Shown here: piece after piece, positions 1 through 33,070 of the stretch
Numbering within the stretch: the first letter of the stretch is position 1
Layout of the letters: each line of letters starts with the position of its first letter
NCBI GenBank assembly: GCA_020853095.1
Contig: JADYZN010000012.1
Location: 1-33,268, forward strand
Origin: Phycisphaerales bacterium
Lineage (GTDB): Bacteria > Planctomycetota > Phycisphaerae > Tepidisphaerales > Tepidisphaeraceae
Direction: 5' to 3'
DNA: 33,268 nt
The notes under the pieces: model-generated
Told to the model about the DNA's origin: nothing
What the model saw: only the letters and a program-made list of their open reading frames with translations
The model's database searches: none
Position numbers and translations under genes: made by a program

Positions 1-3000
1 CGACTGCGGCGAGTAATCCGCTCCCGGCTCGGCCGTGCCCGAAAGGGTGTAGTAGACCGTCAGGGCCGAACTGTACTGGCCCGAGCGGGTGAAGGTGAAA
101 GTCAGGGGGTTTTCGGTATCGCCCTCAGTCGTGCTGGAGGTGGATACCGTAACGTCGACCATGGGGATGGGATCCGACTCCTCCTGGTCCGGAGCGGGCG
201 ACCAGCGTTCCAAACCCCAGGTGACGCCGCCGCTGTTGTCATCATAGGGATCGTCTACGAGATAAACCTCGATGGCGCCCCCGGGGTGATCAAAGGCCAG
301 ATACTGGCCTTGTGCCGCATTGCTGGCCGCCGATGCTGAGTTGTAGGGGTAAACCGCTATGCTCCCGACTCCCGATCCGTTGGAAACAAAGCTGCCGCCG
401 ACACCCCATTGCTCGCTGGAATATTTATAAAAATTAATCGCACCGCTCTGATGCTTCACGCGATAACGGCCGGGATTGAACGTGCCAAAGCTATGGTGCG
501 CCGCGGAAGAAATGCTCGGGCTGGCAGTGGTGCCGGTGTCCACCCATTCTCCCTCTTCCTGACTCTCTGGATCTTCCAATTCCAAAGTGGTGGCGCTGCT
601 GGTGTTCGAATAACCCGAGTTGTTTCCACTGACGGCCGCCCGCACTCGGTAGGCATAAGCGGTTTCGGCAAACAGCCCCACATCCGAATAATAGCGGGCA
701 TTGGCGTCGAGGGTGGCGATGGTCGAAAAAGCCGACTGCGGATCATCCGACAACCGCCGCTCGACGACGTGGGCGGTTTCATGACTGGAATTGTCCGTCC
801 AGTGCAGGTTGATCTCGCCGTAAGAAACCGCGCTGGCGCTCAGGTTGGTGGGCGCGGCCGGCGCGGTGGTGGCGCTGGTCGAAGCGCTGTAGCTCCCCGC
901 GCCGTTGTTGTTGTAGGCGCTGACGCGGTAGTATCGGTGCATCCCTTCGCTCATGCTGCCATCGGTGTAGGTCGTGCCGGTGATGGAATCTGCCAGCAGT
1001 TCCCAATCCAAGCCATCGGGACTTTGCTGGAGGGTGTATTCGGCAGCGCCATCCACGGCATCCCATTGCAACGAAATGGACGAGGTGCTTTGCGCCTGGG
1101 CGGTTAGTCCCGTGGGAGCGGTGGCCAACAGGGCGACGGTGGCGAGATTGGAGGGGTTGGACTGGCCATCGCCGGTGTAGGCGGCGGCGTAATAATAGTG
1201 GCGATTCACCGGGTTCAGGCCGTCGATCGAGGTGGAACGGGCGCTGCCGTTGAGGTCCTTGACCAGGCTCCAAGTGTCGCCGCCGTCGATGCTTTGATAG
1301 ATGCGAAACCCATCGGCCGTGCCGCCATAACTCCAGGTGAGGTTAATTTGATGCACGGAAGCGGCCAAGGCCGTGAGATTCTGTGGGATGGCAATGGAAT
1401 TGTTCGCCGGAAGTTCAACCGGCGGATTTTGCGGATCTTCGGGAACTTCCGTCAAGGCGACGGTATCCGCCACGTTGAGGCGGACGTTGTCGAATTCCAC
1501 CTGGCGATGGTGGCCGTCGGTGTTGGCTTTGCCGACCAGCCGAATTTCCAGGGCGCTGCCGACATGGAGGTCGTTGGGCGCCACGGCATAACTGACCGTG
1601 GAGGTGCGGTACGCGCCGCCGTTCAGAGAGAGGATGTCATTGTCCTCCGCCACCACCACGCCGCCGGCCAAAAGCTGAACCTTGTATCCCTGTGGTTCGG
1701 CGTTGGTCGGATAGCCCACATCCACGCTCAGGGTGTATGTCCTGCCGGCGGCCAGAGATTCACCAAGCACCTGTGAGAACGACGATTCATCGGTGATGCC
1801 GTCGGTTTCAAAATAAGCGACGTTGGCCCCTTCCGTGGCGGCGGGTATGAACCGATCCAGGGGAGGATTCCAGACGCCGACATTCACCCCGCTCGCGGCA
1901 TTGATCGTCCAGGAGGGAACGTCGCCGGTCGTCCAGCCATTGTCGCTCAGAGCGGGGTTTTCAAACCCCCAGTTGGGGCCGGTGAGGGAGCGGTCAAAGA
2001 AATGATTGACGACATTGGAGAAATCGGAACTGACGTTGGCCGAGCAGTTGCGTATCTTGTAATAAAACCGATGGCCGGATTCCAAATTGGTGTCAGAGAA
2101 AGCCTGGGAGGTGGTCGTGCCCGCCAGGGAATAAATTTTGTTGTCCGTGGATCGCCAGACTTCAAACCACCGGCCGGCGGCCGGGTGTCCGTTCCAGGCC
2201 AGGTCGACCGAATTGGCGCCCACGCCCGTGAGATTCAAATCCGTCGGCGCCAGCAGTTGCGTTGTCACGGTCGCCGTCTCTTCCACCGAGGGATCACTGG
2301 CAAAAGAGGTGATCAGCTTGTAGTCGTAGGTTGTCCCCTCATCCAGGCCCGTGTCAATGTAGGAAGTGGTCAGCGGATCGAGCGAATCCACCGTGGTGAA
2401 CGATCCTCCATGCGGGGCGCGTTGCAGGGTGTATCCGGTGATATCGCCGGTTTCCAGCGGCCAGACCAACCCCACCGAGATTTCAGAAAGGGCCATGGCG
2501 GTCAATTCCGCCGGCAGCCCCACGGGCGAGTTCTCGTACAGGTCTTCGACCTCGGTATCGCTCAAGCCATAATTGTAAAGGTGCACATCATCAATCGAGC
2601 CTTGGAACATCCGCTCGCCGATACCCCCGCTGGACCCGATCGACCAGGAGGCATCCACCGGCAGCGCGCCCACCGAATCAGTGCGGGAAAAACCCAGTAC
2701 ACCATTGCGGTAAATTTTCCAGGCCGTTCCATCGTACAAGCCGGTGATGTGCACCCACTGGCCGATGTCCGTCAGCGGCATGGGCATATCCGCCCCATGC
2801 GGAATTCCATCCCCCCAGGTGCCGACAACGTACACCGGCCCCTCTTCGGTTTCGGCTATCCGCAGCGTCACCTCGCCATTGGGCGCTATCCGATAGCCGT
2901 GAGCGATGATCGTGCGAAAGCCATCGGTCGCTTGCGGCTTGATCCAGGCCGAGAGTGTGACCTTGCCGGAGAGGTCCAATGAGGAAGAATTTCCCAGATC

Positions 3001-4284
3001 GACCAGATCGTTGTAGCCATCGAAATAAAGAGCATCGCCTTCATGCCCTTCACTCCACTGCGCGCGCCCGCCGATCACGCCATCGTTGTTAAAATCAGAA
3101 GTATCAAAAGCGGTGCTGCCGCCCCCCTCGTTAAGACGCCACCACCCCACCAATGCCGGGTCCGGATCCGGGTCCGGAAGAATCGGAAGGGCATCCAGCC
3201 GAACGTTATCAAATTCCACCTGCTTATAGGTCCCGGAGGATGCTTTGGCGATCAGGCGAATCTCCATCGCCTGCCCAAGTTGGCTGGGATTGGCGGAGGT
3301 GTTGAAGGTGAGGGAGGCCGTCTTCCAGCCGCCCTGGGTGAGGGTCATGGAATTGTCATCTTCCGCCAGCACCACGCCGCCCGCCAGGAGTTGAATTTTA
3401 TAGCCCTTGCCGGCCGTGGTATTGGGATATCCCACCTCCACCTTCAGTTCATAATGAGTGTTGGCGGCCAGGTTCTCGCCCAGCACCTGCGACAGCACTG
3501 CATCGGTGGAACTGCTGCTGGGCGTCTCCAGATAAGCAATGTTGGAACCTTCGGGTGCTTGCGGGCTGAAGTGACTGGCCGTGGCATTCCATACCCCGCC
3601 ATCTGACCCGCTGCCGGGCGTGATCGTCCAGCCGGGAACGGAATTGGTGGTGTAATTGTTATCGCTCAGCACCGGGTTTTCAAAGCCAAAGTTCGGGATC
3701 ACCACCGAATGGGCCACCGGCGCGGCATCCAGCCGAACATTGTCAAAATTCACCTGCTTGTCACTGACCGGGGAGACCGGGTCGGCCAACAGACGAATCT
3801 CCAACGGACTGCCCAGCTTCGCATGACCTGCCGGCGCGGTGAAGTGCACCACCGAAGTGGCCCAGCCACCGCTGGAAAGATTCAGCGAGTTGTTATCCTC
3901 TGCCAGCACCGATCCCCCGGCCAATAACTGCACCCGATAGGGATGGGCATTCATATCCAGCCTTCGGCCCACATCCACCGACAGCGTATAGGCGGTATTC
4001 GCCTCCAGATTCTGAGACAGCACCTGGGAGATGGAGGAGGTTCCGCCCGCGTTGTACGCATAGGCGATGTTGGATCCCTGCGGCGCCTGATTGGTGTAAT
4101 AACTCGTGGTGGGATTGAACACCCCCACGCCCGTGCCACTGTTGGAGATGGACGTCGTCCAATCAGCGATGGAATTGACCGTATAGTTTCCGTCGGTCAA
4201 TACCGGATCTTCAAATCCCGGATTCAATACGGTGACGCTGCTGAGCAGCCGCCGCTCTTCAAGTGTGTCAAAAAGTACGCCCAT
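1..4284 (-). CDS. Giant modular secreted/surface protein with LEPR-xLL-type N-terminus (3' end outside window)
   Basis: The frame is open from 4491 to the window edge with no stop, so the C-terminus is missing and at least 1428 codons remain from the start chosen here. The ATG at 4284 gives MGVLFDTLEERRLLSS, which resembles the LEPR-xLL motif found at the N-termini of planctomycete exported proteins. Upstream ATGs (4437, 4461, 4491) are possible, but the translation there does not look coding, and no clear Shine-Dalgarno settles the choice. Modules in order: two 'N-x-GFE-x-P ... FDNVRLDA' modules of about 165 residues (about 19-182 and 195-360), LamG-like (about 375-571, 'GWWRLNEGGGS'), two FN3 (about 588-765), a third GFE-P module (about 766-940), three FN3 (about 965-1225), an unassigned stretch, and the start of a Calx-beta domain (about 1373 on). 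Such modules suggest glycan binding or adhesion at the cell surface. The substrate is unknown. Confidence 0.85.
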   Translation of the reverse strand, partial: MGVLFDTLEERRLLSSVTVLNPGFEDPVLTDGNYTVNSIADWTTSISNSGTGVGVFNPTTSYYTNQAPQGSNIAYAYNAGGTSSISQVLSQNLEANTAYTLSVDVGRRLDMNAHPYRVQLLAGGSVLAEDNNSLNLSSGGWATSVVHFTAPAGHAKLGSPLEIRLLADPVSPVSDKQVNFDNVRLDAAPVAHSVVIPNFGFENPVLSDNNYTTNSVPGWTITPGSGSDGGVWNATASHFSPQAPEGSNIAYLETPSSSSTDAVLSQVLGENLAANTHYELKVEVGYPNTTAGKGYKIQLLAGGVVLAEDDNSMTLTQGGWKTASLTFNTSANPSQLGQAMEIRLIAKASSGTYKQVEFDNVRLDALPILPDPDPDPALVGWWRLNEGGGSTAFDTSDFNNDGVIGGRAQWSEGHEGDALYFDGYNDLVDLGNSSSLDLSGKVTLSAWIKPQATDGFRTIIAHGYRIAPNGEVTLRIAETEEGPVYVVGTWGDGIPHGADMPMPLTDIGQWVHITGLYDGTAWKIYRNGVLGFSRTDSVGALPVDASWSIGSSGGIGERMFQGSIDDVHLYNYGLSDTEVEDLYENSPVGLPAELTAMALSEISVGLVWPLETGDITGYTLQRAPHGGSFTTVDSLDPLTTSYIDTGLDEGTTYDYKLITSFASDPSVEETATVTTQLLAPTDLNLTGVGANSVDLAWNGHPAAGRWFEVWRSTDNKIYSLAGTTTSQAFSDTNLESGHRFYYKIRNCSANVSSDFSNVVNHFFDRSLTGPNWGFENPALSDNGWTTGDVPSWTINAASGVNVGVWNPPLDRFIPAATEGANVAYFETDGITDESSFSQVLGESLAAGRTYTLSVDVGYPTNAEPQGYKVQLLAGGVVVAEDNDILSLNGGAYRTSTVSYAVAPNDLHVGSALEIRLVGKANTDGHHRQVEFDNVRLNVADTVALTEVPEDPQNPPVELPANNSIAIPQNLTALAASVHQINLTWSYGGTADGFRIYQSIDGGDTWSLVKDLNGSARSTSIDGLNPVNRHYYYAAAYTGDGQSNPSNLATVALLATAPTGLTAQAQSTSSISLQWDAVDGAAEYTLQQSPDGLDWELLADSITGTTYTDGSMSEGMHRYYRVSAYNNNGAGSYSASTSATTAPAAPTNLSASAVSYGEINLHWTDNSSHETAHVVERRLSDDPQSAFSTIATLDANARYYSDVGLFAETAYAYRVRAAVSGNNSGYSNTSSATTLELEDPESQEEGEWVDTGTTASPSISSAAHHSFGTFNPGRYRVKHQSGAINFYKYSSEQWGVGGSFVSNGSGVGSIAVYPYNSASAASNAAQGQYLAFDHPGGAIEVYLVDDPYDDNSGGVTWGLERWSPAPDQEESDPIPMVDVTVSTSSTTEGDTENPLTFTFTRSGQYSSALTVYYTLSGTAEPGADYSPQS

Positions 4285-4944
4285 CGAACGAGGTCTTGAT
4301 GATTTTTGTCCGGAAAACCCGCGAGTGAACTCGCCCAAGATTGAAAAACCAAACAGGTCCACCCCGAATCTGAAATGCTCAGATGTCCAGGCCCCATTCG
4401 TGTCCCAACTAGCACCCAAAAGAAATGCATTCACCATGGCCCCGATCCCCAGTCCCCGCATCAAGCGGAAATAAATGTGTGATTGAAACATACTCCCGTG
4501 CGGGCCATCACGTCAACAAAATTTTCAACAAATCCACCGGACTTGATGAATCATCCCGGCAGGCAACGCGGTCATCCTGAGTGAACGTGAATCATCTCAA
4601 CTATCCTTCGCGGAAACGGTCGTGGTGACACGCTTCATCGGATGGGAACAGGGACGAGATCTTGACTCATATCACTCCGTTCTTGGTCGGCAAGTCAATA
4701 ATTGGTTGAAAGCTTCCGCGGTGCGAACCCTGGAGGGCGTCGCTCCGCGACGCGGGGATGTTGGGATGTCGGGATTTCGGGAGGGTGGGACGTGTTGGTG
4801 AATGGGTGGTTCGGGGTGAATTCGGCGGCGGAGGACCGCCCCCCTCCAAACATCTCCGGACGAACGGTGGGTTATGGGAACATGCGGGGGCCGATAACCG
4901 GGAAGCGGGGTTTTTCGCTTGAAAAAAGGGGGGGCGGGGTCAAA
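4285..4944. other. Intergenic stretch without a confident gene
   Basis: No convincing coding region is seen between the modular protein and the tandem repeat. Positions 4285-4491 are open in the frame of the leftward gene and could belong to it if it starts further upstream. A perfect 7-bp stem with a 3-base loop (GCGTCGC-TCC-GCGACGC) lies at 4737-4753. G-rich runs follow at about 4760-4800 and 4920-4940. The promoter of the leftward gene should lie here, but no clear -35/-10 pair stands out. Confidence 0.5.
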
Positions 4945-24427: not shown

Positions 24428-24808
24428 ATGGCCTGCACTTTTTGCCGAAGCGGGATATTCGCAACCTTGTCACGCGCCGCCGCCAAGTCGGCCGCGGCGA
24501 AGTTGAGGCGCGTTCAATTCCTGTCGGTTGAACCCGACTGGGCACGGCGGGCCGCCATTTGCGAACGCTGTCCGCTGCGCGTGGTTCAACGGGGGGTTTC
24601 CTATTGCGGCCGTCCGTTCACGCAACAGATCGTCCGGGAATCGACTCTGGAGGGTTGTGGATGCCCGACAAAGGACAAGGCCAAATCGCCCGATGAGCAT
24701 TGCCCGCTGACGATCAATCATCGTCCGGCCGTTCAACTTGACGGCCATTGCAACTGTAAATGGTGCAGTGCGGCCGATCGCGACGACCATGATGCACGGT
24801 CAAATTAG
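24428..24808 (+). CDS. Small Cys-rich protein, possible metal-binding
   Basis: 126 residues. The core is C45-x2-C48 (ICERCPLR), C60 (SYCGRPF), then GCGCP (C77, C79) with K-rich spacing to HCPL (C92). This C-x2-C ... C ... GCGCP-x(n)-CPL pattern resembles small zinc- or Fe-S-binding proteins of unknown role seen in phage and environmental genomes. A second C-x-C-x2-C cluster (C108, C110, C113) ends the protein. It is divergent from the TadG-like gene (34-bp gap) and ends 7 bp from the oppositely oriented RyR gene. The start at 24428 lacks a clear ribosome-binding site, and an internal start is possible. The function is unknown. Confidence 0.6.
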   Translation: MACTFCRSGIFATLSRAAAKSAAAKLRRVQFLSVEPDWARRAAICERCPLRVVQRGVSYCGRPFTQQIVRESTLEGCGCPTKDKAKSPDEHCPLTINHRPAVQLDGHCNCKWCSAADRDDHDARSN

Positions 24809-24815
24809 ACAGAGC

Positions 24816-26609
24816 CTACTCCGGGCGTTGGATGATCCGCATTCCCATTTCACGCGCCAGGGCCGGCAGATTACGCACCGGATCGCGGTCGTAGTCGCGA
24901 ATTTCCTCGCTCAGTTCATCCCACGAGACCAGGTAGGGGGTCCGCAGTTCGGCGGTATTCTTTTCACCCAGCGTCCAACCGGCCAGGAAACGGTCGGCGT
25001 TCCAGCGGGCGTGTTCCATCTTCGCCAGCACTTCCATCTCCTGATCGCTGATGATTCGCTCCGGCGGATGGGTGGATGAACCGGCCGGGACCATCTCGCA
25101 GCCGATCGCGCGCAATTTGACCGCGATGTGATCCGCCTGCTGGCGGTTGGAATCCTTCAATCCCTCCCCCAGTTGCGGCCACGGGACCAGCGCATCTTCC
25201 GATTGTGGTTTGGCCCCTTCGCGGGTGCGCTTGTTGACGTAAGTTTGGTGGACCATCCGGGCCAGTTGATCCAGTTTTTCACGCAAGACCATCTCCAGCG
25301 AGCAGACTTTTTCCACCTCGCCGAACGGATTGATGTTTCCTCCCACCGCATCCGATCGCCGATCTCCTTCCAACAGGCTCGCCAGGCCGGTTCGTTCGGA
25401 CAGCCAGACGTGGACCGGAATTTTGCGACGATGAATCACCCGCGGCAGATTCAACGCCACCGGCAGGTTGCGATCCCGTTCTTCCAGGCAGACCGCCACC
25501 GTGGCGATCCATGATTCATCGGCCGCCAGTTCCTCCAATTTATTTCGGGGCTGGGGGTCTTCCACATCCTGGGCGATCCAATGCACGTCAACGACCTGTT
25601 CCAGTTGCGGATATTGCGCCGCAAAATGCCGCCGCCGCGTCTCCAGGTCGGCCGACGCCACGGTCACGGCCAGTTTTCGACCATTGGCGAAATGTCCCAC
25701 CCTCGCGGCCGCCAGCAGCACCGATTGCCCCATCGGGCCAAATCCCAGCACCACCAGGTGAGGCCGATGCGAATCGTTCGGGCCGATTCGCACCCGATCC
25801 AGCGGGTGATTGTTCCACAACAGCCGGGCGGCGTTGGCGTAGGTGTTGAACACCGCCGCCTCAAAACGATCATCCCGCCGGGCAAACAGGGCGTGTTGTT
25901 TGAACAATTCGCACAGTTTCCCATCCACCAGATGAACCCGGCAACAGAGCGCCCCGGACGACGTGCCCGTCCTGTTTCCACCGTCAATTTGTTCAAACGC
26001 GCGGACGGCGGATTCGACGTTCACCCCATCTTCGCCGCAGACGCACAAGACCCGCCCCGCGTTTTTCATGCCGGCCCGCCGCAACATCAGTTCGTCGGCC
26101 GCATCCCCCACCAGCACCACCGCCCCCAGCGCGCGCGCCAAAAAAAGGTTGTCGTTGCCCTCCTGGCATTCAATCGCCACCACGCGATCGCCGCGCTGAC
26201 GAAATTCGCGCAGCAACTGCATCCCTTTTCGGCCCAATCCACAGACAATGACGTGATCGCGCCACAACAGGCGAACGCGCAGTTGTTGAAATTGACGCCG
26301 AAAAACGACCAGCACCGTCAGGGCGGCGGTGTAGGCCGTCACGGCGGGCGCCAGGAATTTCGCCACCATCAACGGCCAGTTTTTCTCGCCCACGATCCAG
26401 TCCCCATCCAGCGTGAACAACCTGAACGTCAGGTAAAGGATGTCCGCCGGCGTGCGATGGGGTTGATCGGGCAGATGGGTCAGATATTCACGAAGGCCGA
26501 CGTATCCCAGGATCAAAGCCGCCAGCGCCGACAACGCCCCCGCCAGCCAGCGCACTTCCCTCCAGCGCCCCGGCCGAACTTCCGATGACGGCTCATCCTC
26601 TGTGGTCAC
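24816..26609 (-). CDS. Membrane protein with two TrkA-N Rossmann domains and a C-terminal RyR domain
   Basis: 597 residues from GTG 26609, which has GGAG six bases upstream; TTG 26612 is an alternative. Order: a membrane helix (about 21-40), a pore-loop-like stretch (about 57-75, LYLTFRLFTLDGDW) and a second helix (about 79-103), as in two-helix K+ channels but without the TVGYG selectivity filter. The first Rossmann fold has G124-LGRKG129; the second has G289-FGPMG294 (both GxGxxG). The C-terminal RyR domain is at about 526-590 ('EVLAKMEHARWNADRFLAGW', 'LVSWDELSEE'). TrkA-N domains bind NAD(H) or related nucleotides and gate K+ channels; RyR domains occur in ryanodine receptors and in bacterial proteins of unclear role. 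Whether it conducts ions is uncertain. Its start lies inside the end of rex. Confidence 0.9.
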   Translation of the reverse strand: MTTEDEPSSEVRPGRWREVRWLAGALSALAALILGYVGLREYLTHLPDQPHRTPADILYLTFRLFTLDGDWIVGEKNWPLMVAKFLAPAVTAYTAALTVLVVFRRQFQQLRVRLLWRDHVIVCGLGRKGMQLLREFRQRGDRVVAIECQEGNDNLFLARALGAVVLVGDAADELMLRRAGMKNAGRVLCVCGEDGVNVESAVRAFEQIDGGNRTGTSSGALCCRVHLVDGKLCELFKQHALFARRDDRFEAAVFNTYANAARLLWNNHPLDRVRIGPNDSHRPHLVVLGFGPMGQSVLLAAARVGHFANGRKLAVTVASADLETRRRHFAAQYPQLEQVVDVHWIAQDVEDPQPRNKLEELAADESWIATVAVCLEERDRNLPVALNLPRVIHRRKIPVHVWLSERTGLASLLEGDRRSDAVGGNINPFGEVEKVCSLEMVLREKLDQLARMVHQTYVNKRTREGAKPQSEDALVPWPQLGEGLKDSNRQQADHIAVKLRAIGCEMVPAGSSTHPPERIISDQEMEVLAKMEHARWNADRFLAGWTLGEKNTAELRTPYLVSWDELSEEIRDYDRDPVRNLPALAREMGMRIIQRPE

Positions 26610-27282
26610 CAATGACTCCGCCGGCGCCTGTTCGTTCCGGTTGGCTGGCCGGCACGTTCACCAGAAACGACAACTGCTCCATCTGCACCGCCAGGTCCAC
26701 CGCGTTGAGCGCCACGTCCGCCGGCACGTTCAGTGAGATCGGCGCGAAATTCAGCAACCCTCGAATGCCCGCCTCCACCAGCTTGTCGGCGATCTCCTGG
26801 GCCGCGTCCGCCGGCACCGCGATCATCGCCAGGCGGATGGCATGTTGGTCGATCACCGAACGCAGGTCGTTGAGCGATTCAACCACGAATGGCCCCTGTC
26901 TCTTTCCCACCTTGGACGGATCGTTGTCAAAGATCGCCACCAGGCGAAATCCTTTGGCGTCAAACCCCTTGTAACTCATCAGCGCCCGCCCAAGGTTTCC
27001 CGCTCCAACCAGCAGGACGTTCCAGATTTTGTCCGTGCCCAGGATGCGGCGAACCTGCGCGATCAGGTCGTCCACGCGATAGCCGATGCCGGGATGCCCA
27101 AACTGCCCGAAATAGGCCAGGTCCTTTCTCACCTGGGCATCGGTCAGGTTCAGGGATTGGCCCAGTTGTTTGGACGAGATGGTTCGCCGTCCTTTTCGCG
27201 CGAAAACCTCAAGCTGCCTGAGATACAGGCTGAGCCTTCGCACCGCCGGGTTGGGAACCGATTCAGGCTTTGTTGGATCCAT
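26593..27282 (-). CDS. rex: Redox-sensing transcriptional repressor Rex
   Basis: 229 residues, the family length. The N-terminal winged helix-turn-helix reads 'YLRQLEVFARKGRRTISSKQLG', then 'DAQVRKDLAYFGQFGHPGIGY'. A Rossmann domain follows with 'VLLVGAGNLGRAL' (GxGxxG at 93-98) and 'AIFDNDPSKVGK'. Rex binds promoters when NAD+ dominates and is released by NADH, controlling respiratory and fermentation genes. The ATG at 27282 gives the expected N-terminus; no strong ribosome-binding site is visible. No Rex operator of the TTGTGAN6TCACAA type was recognised by eye. The 3' end overlaps the RyR/TrkA-N gene start by 17 bases. It lies 82 bp after the M3 peptidase gene. Confidence 0.95.
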   Translation of the reverse strand: MDPTKPESVPNPAVRRLSLYLRQLEVFARKGRRTISSKQLGQSLNLTDAQVRKDLAYFGQFGHPGIGYRVDDLIAQVRRILGTDKIWNVLLVGAGNLGRALMSYKGFDAKGFRLVAIFDNDPSKVGKRQGPFVVESLNDLRSVIDQHAIRLAMIAVPADAAQEIADKLVEAGIRGLLNFAPISLNVPADVALNAVDLAVQMEQLSFLVNVPASQPERTGAGGVIGDHRG

Positions 27283-27321
27283 GCGTCAATTCGCCCATTG
27301 AGCCACGCGATTATTTCGACA

Positions 27322-27345
27322 CCGGCGGCGTCGTCAAGCCGCCGG
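27322..27345 (-). terminator. Strong hairpin between the M3 peptidase gene and rex
   Basis: Perfect 8-bp GC-only arms CCGGCGGC (27322-27329) and GCCGCCGG (27338-27345) surround an 8-base loop in the 82-bp spacer. There is no T-run after it on the minus strand, so it is either a Rho-type or weak terminator, an mRNA-stability element, or a structure partially separating rex from the peptidase transcript. Confidence 0.35.
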
Positions 27346-27364
27346 CATCGCCCAAACGGTTTTC

Positions 27365-29074
27365 TCATCGCGGCAAGGCCGACAGCTCGTCCCGCAACGC
27401 CCCCATCAATGGACCAAGCGTCCGCTCGGAAAAATCAAACCGGATGCCGGCCACCGCGAACAACTCCGGCAGGGTCTTCGTTCCGCCCAGCCGCAGCGCC
27501 GCGCGGTAATTCGACACCGCCCGCCGGGGGTCTTCCTTGCTCTTGATCCACAACTGCAGCGCCCCAAGTTGCGCGATGCCGTATTCAACGTAGTAAAACG
27601 GCGCATGGAACAGATGCAGTTGCCGCTGCCACTGGGACTGCCGCATCGCCTCATATCCGCTCCAGTCCACCTTGCTGGAAAACCGGTCCAGGATCGCCAG
27701 CCACTGCTCGGTGCGTTGGCGGCCGGTGTGGCCGGGATGGGTGTAAATCCAGTGCTGGAAAACGTCGATCGTCGCCATCCACGGGAAGAATCGAATGATC
27801 CCCTCCAGCATCGCCCGCCGGGCGCGGTTGGCATCGACGTCCGCGTAAAACACGTCAAAATGTTCGCTGCCCAACAGTTCCATCGATATGCTGGCGACTT
27901 CGCAGAATTCCATGGGGGCGCTGCGCAAAAAGACCAGCGGCTCCTCACGGGCGGCCAGGCAATGAAAAGCGTGTCCCCCTTCGTGCAGCAACGTCTCCAC
28001 GTCACGCTGCAAACCGGCCGCGTTCATGAAAATGAACGGCTCGCGTGCCTCATCCAGCGAACATTGATACCCGCCCGGCTGCTTGCCCTTGCGGCTTTGC
28101 AGATCCAGGTTGTTGCGCTGGCGGAGTACGTCAAAATCCTCCGCCAGTTGCCCGGAGAGGCGACTGAAAATGGTTTTCACCTTTTGCACGAATTCCGCCG
28201 TCTGATCATCGGCGAACGGTCGCAGGGGCGGCCGGTTTTTCGGATCGACCGACAAATCCCACGGCCGCAACCGCTCGAGCTTCAGATCCGCCGCCCGCTG
28301 GCGGTCCAGCTCATCCACCACCGGCACGCACGCCTTCTCAATCGCATCGGCGAAGCGCAGGCAATCCTCCGGCGTGTAATCGAATCGCTTGTACGCCTTC
28401 CAGACGTACGACCGGTAGTTGTCCATCGCGGAATTGGTTGCGATTTGCTGTCGCAACGGCAGCAGTTTGTCGAACAGTTCGTCGATCCGTTCCCGATCCT
28501 GCAAACGACGGTTGGCGCTGGTCTCCCACGCCTCCTGTCGAACCTGGCGGTCCGGCTCCTCGATGAATCTGGCCAGTTGCTGCAACGTGTATTCCCCGCC
28601 CCGAAATTGCACCATCATCGCGCCGCTGATTTTGTCATAATCCGTCACCAGCTTCGTGATCTGCGTCTCCAGCGGAATGTTTTCTTCTCGGAACAGTTCC
28701 ACGTCCGACCGCCATTTGCGTTCCAGCAGGCGATAACGCTGCCCCTGCAACTGCGGGAGAAACGGACTGTCGAGCAGTTTTCGCTGCAACTGAAAAAACA
28801 GCGGCTTGATCTTCGGGTCGATCTGTTCGACAAAGTGCATGTAGGCCCGTTCGATTTGCGGGTCTTCGGTGTGACAGCTTTTGTCGATGTACCGCCGGCT
28901 GCCATACTCATCCACCACCGAGGACAGTTCCGAAACATCCCCCAGCCATTGTTCCAGCTCGTTGGCCGAATGAATCGGCCGGTCGATCAATTGGTTGTAC
29001 AGCGGTTCCAATTGTGAAAAGTCGGCCACGTCAAGATTTTGCGGGACAAATCGCCGTGGATAGGTGGTGTTCAT
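27365..29074 (-). CDS. M3 family zinc oligoendopeptidase
   Basis: 569 residues. The thermolysin-type HExxH is intact: H364-E-G-G-H368 in LLHEGGHAFHCLAA. The more distal 'EVASISMELL' region carries a candidate third zinc ligand, as in PepF/thimet-type M3 peptidases. Length and the absence of a signal peptide suggest cytoplasmic degradation of short peptides. The ATG at 29074 is chosen because AGGAG stands nine bases upstream; the frame also permits TTG at 29077. It is divergent from the ABC ATPase gene across a 116-bp gap. Its place upstream of rex may be incidental. Confidence 0.93.
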   Translation of the reverse strand: MNTTYPRRFVPQNLDVADFSQLEPLYNQLIDRPIHSANELEQWLGDVSELSSVVDEYGSRRYIDKSCHTEDPQIERAYMHFVEQIDPKIKPLFFQLQRKLLDSPFLPQLQGQRYRLLERKWRSDVELFREENIPLETQITKLVTDYDKISGAMMVQFRGGEYTLQQLARFIEEPDRQVRQEAWETSANRRLQDRERIDELFDKLLPLRQQIATNSAMDNYRSYVWKAYKRFDYTPEDCLRFADAIEKACVPVVDELDRQRAADLKLERLRPWDLSVDPKNRPPLRPFADDQTAEFVQKVKTIFSRLSGQLAEDFDVLRQRNNLDLQSRKGKQPGGYQCSLDEAREPFIFMNAAGLQRDVETLLHEGGHAFHCLAAREEPLVFLRSAPMEFCEVASISMELLGSEHFDVFYADVDANRARRAMLEGIIRFFPWMATIDVFQHWIYTHPGHTGRQRTEQWLAILDRFSSKVDWSGYEAMRQSQWQRQLHLFHAPFYYVEYGIAQLGALQLWIKSKEDPRRAVSNYRAALRLGGTKTLPELFAVAGIRFDFSERTLGPLMGALRDELSALPR

Positions 29075-31360: not shown

Positions 31361-33070
31361 ATGGCATGGATCGCAACGGCGTTGCCTCAGTGGCTGGTAC
31401 TGCTTTTTCAAGACAACCATTCGGCCGCCCACACGGCGCTGCTGATCGCGCTGGTGGCGGCGTGCGGCCTGGCGATTGGGAGCATTCAGTTTCGCGGCCT
31501 TGGGCTGGGGGTGGCGGGCGTATTGTTTTCGGGGTTGCTGGTGGGGCATCTCTATGGCCGGCGGGACGTGCCGGCGCTCAATGAGCCGGTCATGGAGTTT
31601 GTCCGTGAATTTGGCCTCATTTTGTTCGTTTACACCATCGGCGTGCAGGTGGGGCCGGGGTTTTGCGCCTCGTTGCGGCGGAACGGCCTGCCGTTGAATC
31701 TCATGGCGGCCACGATCGTGGTGCTGGGGGCGTTGATCGTGATCGGCATCCACGTCCTGGGCGACGTGCCCGTGCCGGCGGCGGTGGGGCTGTTTTCCGG
31801 GGCGACCACCAACACCCCCAGTCTCGGCGCCGCCCGCGAAGCGCTCAAGGGGCTGAACGCTCCCGATGAGTCGATCACCCAGCCGGGCATCGCCTATGCC
31901 ATGGCTTATCCCTTCGGCATCATCGGCATCATTGTTTCAATGCTGCTGATGCGGCTGTTTTTCCGCATCAACCCCCATGCCGAGGCGCGGGAATTCGCCC
32001 ACCGGCAGGAGGAACAGACGCCGCGCCTGTCCACGATGAACATCGAGATCAAAAACCCCAATTTCGACCGCCAGCCGCTGGGTCGAATCCCCACGCTGGG
32101 CGACGGGGGGGTGGTCATCTCCCGCATCAAGAACGGTGGTTCGGTGTTGATCCCGCGCGATGACACCGAGGTTCGCACCGGAACCATCCTGCACGCCGTC
32201 GGCGAACCGGATCGGCTGGAGGAGCTTCGGTTGATCGTCGGCGATCAGAGCGAGGTGGACCTCAAAACCCTCCCCAGCCCGATCACCACCCGTCGGGTGC
32301 TGGTCACGCGAAGGCAGGTCCTGGGCAAAACCCCGCGCGAGCTGAAACTGGCCGAGCGGCTCGGCGTCACCATCACCCGCATCAACCGGGCCGAGATCGA
32401 GCTGTCGGCCCATTCCAGCGTTCACCTGCAATTCGGCGACACGGTGGTCATCGTTGGCGGCGAAGAGGCCATCGCCAAAGCGTCGGCCGAGCTGGGCGAT
32501 TCGATTCAGCGCCTCAACCATCCGCAGATCATCCCGTTGTTTGTCGGCATTGCGCTGGGCGTTCTGCTGGGGAGCATCGCGATCCCGCTGCCGGGAATGC
32601 CCGCGCCGGTGAAGCTGGGCTTGGCGGGCGGGCCTTTGCTGGTGGCGATCGTGTTGTCGCGGCTGGGGAACATCGGGCCGGTGGTCTGGTACATGCCGCT
32701 GAGCGCCAATTTCATGCTGCGGGAGCTGGGCATCGTGCTGTTCCTCTCCTGCGTGGGGTTGAACGCGGGGCATCGGTTCCTGGATACGCTGATGGGGCCG
32801 GGGCTGGTGTGGATGGGTTATGGAGCGATCATCACGGTCGTTCCGCTGCTGCTGGTGGGGGTGGTGGCGCGGGTTTTCATGAAAACCAATTACATGACCT
32901 TGTGCGGATTGCTGGCCGGCAGCATGACCGATCCGCCGGCGCTGGCCTTTGCCAATTCCATCGCCACCTCGACCGCGCCGTCGATCTCGTATGCCACGGT
33001 CTACCCGCTGGTGATGCTTTTGCGCGTCTTTGTGGCGCAATTGCTGGTACTGATCCTAGGCTCTGTCTAA
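31361..33070 (+). CDS. AspT/YidE-type transporter with two RCK_C (TrkA-C) domains
   Basis: 569 residues in a two-halves layout: an N-terminal membrane half (about 20-215, with 'FGLILFVYTIGVQVGPGF' and 'SGATTNTPSLGAA'), two cytosolic TrkA-C domains (about 227-300 and 310-385), and a C-terminal membrane half (about 393-567, with 'ELGIVLFLSCVGLNAG' and 'AGSMTDPPALAFAN'). This is the aspartate-alanine exchanger (AAE) architecture, shared with YidE/YbjL. The substrate is unknown. AAGGA lies about 12 bases before the ATG at 31361. RCK_C domains usually bind ligands that gate transport. With glpX just upstream there may be metabolic co-regulation, but this is speculative. Confidence 0.9.
   Translation: MAWIATALPQWLVLLFQDNHSAAHTALLIALVAACGLAIGSIQFRGLGLGVAGVLFSGLLVGHLYGRRDVPALNEPVMEFVREFGLILFVYTIGVQVGPGFCASLRRNGLPLNLMAATIVVLGALIVIGIHVLGDVPVPAAVGLFSGATTNTPSLGAAREALKGLNAPDESITQPGIAYAMAYPFGIIGIIVSMLLMRLFFRINPHAEAREFAHRQEEQTPRLSTMNIEIKNPNFDRQPLGRIPTLGDGGVVISRIKNGGSVLIPRDDTEVRTGTILHAVGEPDRLEELRLIVGDQSEVDLKTLPSPITTRRVLVTRRQVLGKTPRELKLAERLGVTITRINRAEIELSAHSSVHLQFGDTVVIVGGEEAIAKASAELGDSIQRLNHPQIIPLFVGIALGVLLGSIAIPLPGMPAPVKLGLAGGPLLVAIVLSRLGNIGPVVWYMPLSANFMLRELGIVLFLSCVGLNAGHRFLDTLMGPGLVWMGYGAIITVVPLLLVGVVARVFMKTNYMTLCGLLAGSMTDPPALAFANSIATSTAPSISYATVYPLVMLLRVFVAQLLVLILGSV

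What the first reader, a model, noticed from the sequence alone, without database searches (positions are those of the whole stretch)
24816..27282. Overlapping rex and TrkA-N(x2)-RyR genes: possible NAD(H)-sensing membrane module
Seen: rex overlaps by 17 bases the start of a gene with two GxGxxG Rossmann folds, two membrane helices around a pore-like loop without TVGYG, and a C-terminal RyR domain. Known: Rex senses NADH/NAD+, TrkA-N domains bind NAD(H) or similar nucleotides in K+ transport, and RyR domains occur in bacterial proteins of unclear role, where links to nucleotide signalling have been proposed. Inference: a redox-sensing repressor and a nucleotide-gated membrane protein are made together and may answer to the same NAD(H) signal, possibly controlling ion flux or a conflict or stress response.
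Basis: partly seen in the sequence, partly recalled or inferred. Interest (0 to 1): 0.65.

Follow-up and report, generated by a model that had tools for sequence, protein, structure and literature searches.

The report
Predicted nucleotide-gated ion channel with RyR
The gene beside rex most likely encodes a bacterial ion channel opened by a small NAD-derived signal; its relatives in other bacteria sit next to genes of virus-defence signalling, while the neighbouring redox regulator looks like an accidental neighbour.

Summary
The proposed rex/NAD(H) module is not supported: rex sits beside TKR only in this genus (2 of 2 genomes), where the whole neighbourhood is conserved; none of 25 other TKR-family loci has rex, and no Rex operator was found. 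The real story is the TKR family. Full-length relatives (27-39% identical) are scattered over at least seven phyla. In 13 of 25 loci they lie beside TIR, VTGHR/SLOG-like, RelA/SpoT-SLOG-RyR, STAND-RyR or NUDIX genes, against 0 of 60 control TrkA-N loci. AlphaFold models the membrane part as a P-loop channel (closest KcsA, MthK, GsuK) without TVGYG. The RyR pocket keeps three of four residues that bind cyclic-ADP-ribose signals in phage RyDEP. Best reading: a channel gated by an NAD-derived nucleotide that elsewhere works as an output of TIR-type conflict signalling. The window copy stands alone, so its job here is inferred.

The parts
26593..27282 (-). rex, redox-sensing transcriptional repressor (229 aa)
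   Evidence: NCBIfam Rex hits above cut-off; PDB Rex hits
26593..26609 (-). 17-base overlap of rex 3' end with the start of the TKR gene
   Evidence: ORF coordinates and GTG start with SD; not overlapping in the congener (16-base gap)
26616..26619 (-). GGAG Shine-Dalgarno 6 bases before GTG 26609
   Evidence: sequence; same motif before the GTG in the congener
24816..26609 (-). TKR gene: 2TM P-loop + RCK/TrkA-N + second Rossmann + RyR protein (598 aa if counted from TTG 26612)
   Evidence: purifying selection
26478..26573 (-). TM1 helix, residues 14-45
   Evidence: AlphaFold models; hydropathy
26412..26450 (-). pore helix, residues 55-67 (family consensus LYLSxQLF)
   Evidence: KcsA/MthK/GsuK matches
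26379..26411 (-). filter-equivalent loop, residues 68-78, LDGDWIVGEKN; family consensus LESGxVxGP, no TVGYG
26268..26378 (-). TM2 helix, residues 79-115
25797..26258 (-). RCK/TrkA-N Rossmann domain, residues 119-272, GLGRKG and E148
   Evidence: Pfam PF02254; structure match to the NAD+-bound KTN domain 1lss, Z 17.9, rmsd 1.7
25299..25766 (-). second Rossmann domain, residues 283-438, GFGPMG; acidic D replaced by S320 in this genus
   Evidence: gating-ring matches to CASTOR/DMI1 and GsuK
24819..25298 (-). RyR (R12) domain with N-terminal helical extension, residues 439-598
   Evidence: Pfam PF02026; PDB Bt/human RyR hits; Foldseek RyR3
25002..25013 (-). RyR pocket residues H534 and W537 (RyDEP H75, W78)
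   Evidence: alignment with PDB RyR, family alignment, RyDEP paper PMC13232231
24888..24890 (-). RyR pocket residue D575 (RyDEP D117)
   Evidence: as above; D in 17 and N in 6 of 25 family members
24939..24941 (-). T558 at the position of RyDEP H100 (phosphate contact not conserved)

Best explanation
TKR is a tetrameric-type, ligand-gated ion channel. [quoted passage not shown] Binding opens, or de-inhibits, the pore. In many bacteria the gene is an operon partner of TIR, SLOG-like, RelA/SpoT-SLOG-RyR, STAND-RyR and NUDIX proteins, so there it most likely acts as a membrane output of NAD-derived conflict signalling that depolarises the cell. In this planctomycete lineage the gene has become a stand-alone, conserved chromosomal gene translated just after rex; its signal is unknown, with the genome's single TIR-membrane protein as one candidate source. 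Shown by computation: domain anatomy, pore-like fold, pocket residues, selection, neighbour enrichment. Inferred: tetramer, conduction, ion selectivity, ligand, direction of gating, immune role.
For: Pfam TrkA_N + RyR. AlphaFold pLDDT 83, pTM 0.78, with top structural matches GsuK, CASTOR/DMI1 gating ring, KtrA/TrkA and RyR3 R12. The TM part alone matches KcsA/MthK/GsuK (MthK 6u5r Z 8.2, rmsd 2.4 over 86 residues). RyR H534/W537/D575 match RyDEP H75/W78/D117. Conflict-type partners in 13 of 25 family loci against 0 of 60 control loci, and by separate Pfam tallies RyR 8, TIR_2 5, ThsB_TIR 3, and LSDAT, SLATT_1, NUDIX and RelA_SpoT 2 each, against none of these in two or more members of the control. 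Patchy distribution: about 6 of 392 planctomycete genomes have a full-length copy, and the tree does not follow phyla. Purifying selection. Own-genome TIR gene.
Against: The window copy has no TIR, SLOG or NUDIX neighbour and lies among housekeeping genes, as do several relatives. There is no TVGYG, so it is not a standard K+ channel and conduction is unproven. The phosphate-contact histidine of RyDEP is T558 here. RyR-pocket conservation does not fix the ligand (animal R12 binds ATP/ADP). The TM-only Foldseek E-value is weak (0.05), and 118 residues of helices match many channels at Z about 8. Operonic and solo members are interleaved in the tree, so the defence role may not extend to this clade.
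Confidence: 0.5

Rival explanations
1. Housekeeping nucleotide-gated cation channel of the GsuK kind: the RCK ring senses NAD+/ADP (energy state), the RyR domain is an accessory adenine-nucleotide sensor, and there is no immune role in this lineage.
For: Stand-alone, syntenic, purifying selection in this genus; GsuK is the closest full-length channel match and is opened by NAD+ and ADP (PMC3510474); RCK keeps GxGxxG and E148.
Against: Family-wide coupling to TIR/SLOG/RyR genes; patchy distribution; K+ filter absent; second Rossmann lost its acidic residue here.
Confidence: 0.25
2. Membrane-anchored signal sink: the RyR domain sequesters or hydrolyses cADPR-type signals (as phage RyDEP does) and the membrane part does not conduct.
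For: H534 and D575 correspond to the RyDEP catalytic dyad H75/D117; NUDIX neighbours could further process ADPR.
Against: Conserved P-loop-type membrane unit and tandem gating-ring domains would be unnecessary; most tested RyDEP relatives with the pocket are not enzymes (PMC13232231); D575 is N in 6 of 25 members.
Confidence: 0.12
3. One reading: rex and TKR form one NAD(H)-responsive redox module.
For: Adjacent with 17-base overlap and a good SD; adjacency kept in the congener.
Against: Adjacency limited to one genus with general synteny; rex elsewhere has other neighbours; none of 25 other TKR loci has rex; no Rex operator.
Confidence: 0.08
4. Decaying relic of a horizontally acquired conflict gene with no present function.
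For: Patchy distribution and lack of partner genes.
Against: Intact ORF in both species, dN/dS 0.126, conserved SD and RyR pocket.
Confidence: 0.03

Closest known systems
GsuK (Geobacter sulfurreducens 2TM, dual-RCK, NAD+/ADP-activated K+ channel; PDB 4gx0-4gx5, PMC3510474)
   Same: TM1-P-TM2 followed by two Rossmann/RCK lobes; best full-length Foldseek hits
   Different: GsuK is K+ selective and has no RyR domain; sequence identity about 12-15%; its nucleotide site is in RCK2, whereas here the first domain keeps the canonical motif and the second lacks the acidic residue
CASTOR/DMI1 plant channels (gating rings 6o6j, 7vm8)
   Same: Gating-ring fold, VIA Z 19-20 over 290-304 residues
   Different: Only the cytosolic ring was compared; no RyR domain
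RyR R12 domains: B. thetaiotaomicron RyR-like protein (3nrt), human RyR3 R12 (6uhb, 9l9b), phage RyDEP (PMC13232231)
   Same: PF02026 match, pocket H/W/D residues, fold
   Different: Here fused to a predicted bacterial P-loop channel; the phosphate-contact histidine is T558
TIR/SLOG/NUDIX/RelA-SpoT nucleotide-signalling conflict systems, including Thoeris
   Same: Relatives of TKR are neighbours of these domains
   Different: The window copy has no such neighbour; I found no paper in the library that describes an RyR-channel as a Thoeris effector
Trk/Ktr RCK subunits
   Same: TrkA_N domain, adenine-nucleotide binding fold
   Different: Those are separate subunits of TrkH/KtrB; TKR carries its own pore-like unit

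Membership tests
2TM RCK-gated K+ channel (MthK/GsuK) | TM1-pore helix-TM2 topology | tested here: met
   Predicted: helices 14-45, 55-67, 79-115; TM-only model matches MthK/GsuK/KcsA. Model only.
2TM RCK-gated K+ channel (MthK/GsuK) | RCK domain directly after the inner helix | tested here: met
   PF02254 at 121-205; VIA matches to MthK/GsuK across TM+RCK
2TM RCK-gated K+ channel (MthK/GsuK) | K+ selectivity filter T-x-G-Y/F-G | tested here: not met
   Loop LDGDWIVGEKN; family consensus LESGxVxGP. Hence not filed as a K+ channel.
2TM RCK-gated K+ channel (MthK/GsuK) | Ion conduction and tetramer | not testable with these tools
   Needs experiment
RyR/R12 domain family (PF02026) | Match above Pfam gathering score | tested here: met
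   48.5 bits against cut-off 27.4
RyR/R12 domain family (PF02026) | Ligand pocket residues H75, W78, D117 (RyDEP numbering) | tested here: met
   H534, W537, D575 by alignment through the B. theta RyR
RyR/R12 domain family (PF02026) | Phosphate-contact histidine H100 (RyDEP; not required for family membership) | tested here: not met
   T558 here; H in only 8 of 25 TKR family members
RyR/R12 domain family (PF02026) | Binding of adenine/ADP-ribose ligands | not testable with these tools
   Needs binding assay
TIR-based nucleotide conflict system (Thoeris-like) | TIR/SLOG-type signal producer next to the gene | tested here: not met
   Absent at this locus; present in 13 of 25 related loci. One distant TIR gene in the genome.
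TIR-based nucleotide conflict system (Thoeris-like) | Protection against phage | not testable with these tools
   Needs experiment
Rex redox repressor (for the upstream gene) | Rex DNA-binding and NAD(H) domains | tested here: met
Rex-regulated operon (rex + TKR) | Rex operator TTGTG-N8-CACAA upstream | tested here: not met
   No match near 27282-27365 with up to 2 mismatches; window total below chance
Rex-TKR functional module | Adjacency conserved beyond local synteny | tested here: not met
   Only in one genus

The most novel reading that the evidence does not exclude
TKR proteins are a family of bacterial P-loop ion channels gated through an RyR domain by TIR-made ADP-ribose signals: ion-channel effectors of NAD-derived immunity, in which the domain that animals use in the ryanodine receptor already gates a cation channel with the same class of ligand (cADPR type).
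Probability: 0.33. Interest if true: 0.85.

Novelty: new variant of a known kind. Interest (0 to 1): 0.55.

Why it matters
Whether and how cADPR-type nucleotides act on ryanodine receptors is a long-running open question. Phage RyR domains were reported in 2026 to bind or cut 2'/3'cADPR (PMC13232231). A compact bacterial protein that fuses an RyR domain to a predicted ion channel, and sits beside TIR genes in many phyla, would give a small system in which nucleotide-gating through an RyR domain can be measured directly. It would also add an ion-channel output to TIR-type bacterial immunity. For this window, the useful correction is that the rex neighbour is probably incidental.

Tried and rejected
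(1) rex-TKR as a conserved pair: searched rex in 26 genomes of the family, and TKR in 392 planctomycete genomes and the genome-contig collection; no pair outside the genus. (2) Rex operator: pattern with 2 mismatches, none at the operon. (3) Phage or plasmid carriage of close TKR relatives: none in phages; four distant plasmid hits, of which the Sinorhizobium and Arcobacter ones were informative. (4) PADLOC: neither window protein is in a known defence model. (5) SLOG identity of the VTGHR partner proteins: Pfam gave no hit over that domain and the PDB profile search was unconvincing, so they are called SLOG-like only by motif and by SLATT-like 2TM tails in two of them; LSDAT/SLOG is directly matched in the RelA-RyR proteins. 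(6) Literature on bacterial TrkA-RyR proteins: no held paper; the 2015 NAR survey of nucleotide-centric systems, which I recall as treating SLOG/TIR/RyR systems, is not in the library and could not be checked. (7) Solo and operonic members do not form separate clades, so context cannot be transferred to this clade by phylogeny. (8) Tetramer modelling was not possible with the tool.

Full report
Observation. The two genes are real and lie where stated. rex is 26593-27282 on the minus strand and is a full Rex protein. The downstream gene can start at TTG 26612 or GTG 26609. In the congener the two genes do not overlap but are 16 bases apart. Pfam finds TrkA_N at 121-205 and RyR at 526-593 above the curated cut-offs. 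The protein is called TKR below; residues are numbered from TTG 26612.

Anatomy. An AlphaFold model built with 15 family sequences has mean pLDDT 83 and pTM 0.78: helix 14-45, short helix 55-67, helix 79-115, a Rossmann/RCK domain 120-268, a second Rossmann 285-430 and the RyR region 439-598. Foldseek's best hits are the two-RCK channel GsuK, TrkA, BK/Slo, MthK and, for the C-terminus, human RyR3 R12 and the B. thetaiotaomicron/human RyR chimera. VIA puts the ring region closest to the CASTOR/DMI1 gating rings (Z 19-20), KtrA and GsuK. The membrane part folded alone (pLDDT 78) matches almost only P-loop channels: KcsA by Foldseek (weak E 0.05, probability 0.97) and MthK by VIA (6u5r, Z 8.2, rmsd 2.4, 86 residues). 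So the membrane part models as a pore unit rather than an anchor, but the K+ signature TVGYG is absent: the loop is LDGDWIVGEKN here and LESGxVxGP in the family. Conduction and selectivity are inferences.

Ligand sites. The first Rossmann keeps GLGRKG and the acidic E148 at the end of the second strand; 23 of 25 family members have E or D there. The second keeps GFGPMG, but the acidic residue, D in 20 of 25 members, is S320 in this genus's window copy. In the RyR domain, phage RyDEP binds and hydrolyses 2'/3'cADPR through H75, W78, H100 and D117, and these residues are shared with animal R12 domains (PMC13232231). By alignment through the B. theta RyR-like structure they correspond to H534, W537, T558 and D575 here: three of four kept.

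Relatives. Full-length homologues (27-39% identical) were found in Ignavibacteriota, Chloroflexota, Bacteroidota, Myxococcota/deltaproteobacteria, Acidobacteriota, Verrucomicrobiota, Planctomycetota and, more distantly, on Sinorhizobium plasmids. In an even draw of 392 planctomycete genomes only about six have one. The tree does not follow phyla. An Arcobacter plasmid has the family split into a TrkA_N gene and an RyR gene, next to a DUF4062-TPR membrane protein and a type I restriction gene.

Neighbours of relatives. Beside TKR homologues lie TIR proteins, TIR-STAND and TIR-WD40 proteins, RelA/SpoT-TPR-LSDAT(SLOG)-RyR proteins, STAND/AAA-RyR proteins, NUDIX proteins, and proteins starting GVTGHR (SLOG-like by motif, two with SLATT-like 2TM tails). 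A Pfam tally of 81 neighbours within two genes gave RyR 8, TIR_2 5, ThsB_TIR 3, and LSDAT, SLATT_1, NUDIX and RelA_SpoT 2 each; 76 neighbours of control TrkA_N proteins found by the same search gave none of these in two or more members. Per locus, using profiles built here, 15 of 25 TKR loci have a partner against 0 of 60 controls. Leaving out two doubtful loci (the split Arcobacter one, and L049 with a lone NUDIX gene) gives 13; Fisher p about 2e-9 with 13 of 23. Caveats: the profiles were trained partly on these neighbours, and about a third of the controls are Hymenobacter.

rex. Rex is present in 20 of 26 genomes of the family with varied neighbours; only the two species of this genus have TKR next to it. 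There the whole stretch from the Tad gene to the Asp-Al permease is collinear, so the pairing is no more conserved than its surroundings. No other TKR locus has rex. No Rex operator is found at the operon. dN/dS is 0.126 for TKR, 0.099 for rex and 0.05-0.18 for neighbours, so both proteins are constrained, but nothing ties them together beyond position.

Own genome. TKR is the only RyR protein in this genome and in its congener. Each genome has one TIR_2 protein with a transmembrane segment, beside what read as an Rrf2-type regulator and a succinate dehydrogenase/fumarate reductase iron-sulphur subunit. It could be a source of an NAD-derived signal; this is a guess.

Mechanism. Most likely an RCK-type gated channel in which an RyR domain adds recognition of an ADP-ribose-type nucleotide. 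In operonic relatives it would be the membrane output, or a sensor, of TIR-type conflict signalling. In this lineage it is a stand-alone, conserved gene whose trigger is unknown. It works like GsuK with an RyR sensor; it is not filed as a K+ channel, because the filter test failed, nor as a Thoeris component, because the TIR-neighbour test failed at this locus.

Novelty. Each domain is known, and RyR domains were already tied to nucleotide immune signals by the RyDEP work and, from memory, by earlier surveys of nucleotide-centric conflict systems that I could not read here. The fusion of a P-loop channel, tandem Rossmann ring and RyR sensor, its spread and its tie to TIR/RelA/SLOG genes appear to be a new variant; I found no paper on it in the library.

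Noticed in passing
window 31361-33070 (+): A second protein with RCK-type domains: an Asp-Al_Ex permease with TrkA_C domains, a few genes from TKR; collinear in the congener.
   Followed up: no
window 24428-24808 (+): Small cysteine-rich ORF (126 aa, conserved cysteine spacing in the congener, no Pfam match) ending convergently 7 bases from the TKR stop.
   Followed up: no
L043:4791-7445, L044:514-3111, L047:11235-13718, L052:3268-5757, L055:969-3482: RelA/SpoT-TPR-(LSDAT/SLOG)-RyR fusion proteins, mostly next to NUDIX and/or TIR genes: a predicted alarmone synthetase under RyR/SLOG control.
   Followed up: partly
L063:3-962 (-): NUDIX-TIR fusion protein near a second NUDIX-like gene, a stand-alone RyR protein and a TKR relative in a Pirellula-like MAG.
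   Followed up: partly
L020:4949-6438 (+): Arcobacter plasmid with the TKR family split into a TrkA_N gene and an RyR gene, beside DUF4062-TPR and type I restriction genes.
   Followed up: partly
L041, L046, L048, L050, L051, L059, L061: Conserved GVTGHR...LAEGADRL partner protein beside TKR in several phyla, without a Pfam match over that domain; probably a SLOG-type nucleotide enzyme or sensor not covered by current models.
   Followed up: partly
G000:C8:4351-4704 (locus L148:595-1971, -): The genome's only TIR_2 protein, with a transmembrane segment, lies beside an Rrf2-like regulator and a succinate dehydrogenase/fumarate reductase-like iron-sulphur gene in both species of the genus.
   Followed up: partly
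window 3-4491 (-): Large protein with three HpiC1-like domains, a laminin-G-like and an fn3 domain, probably a secreted surface protein.
   Followed up: no
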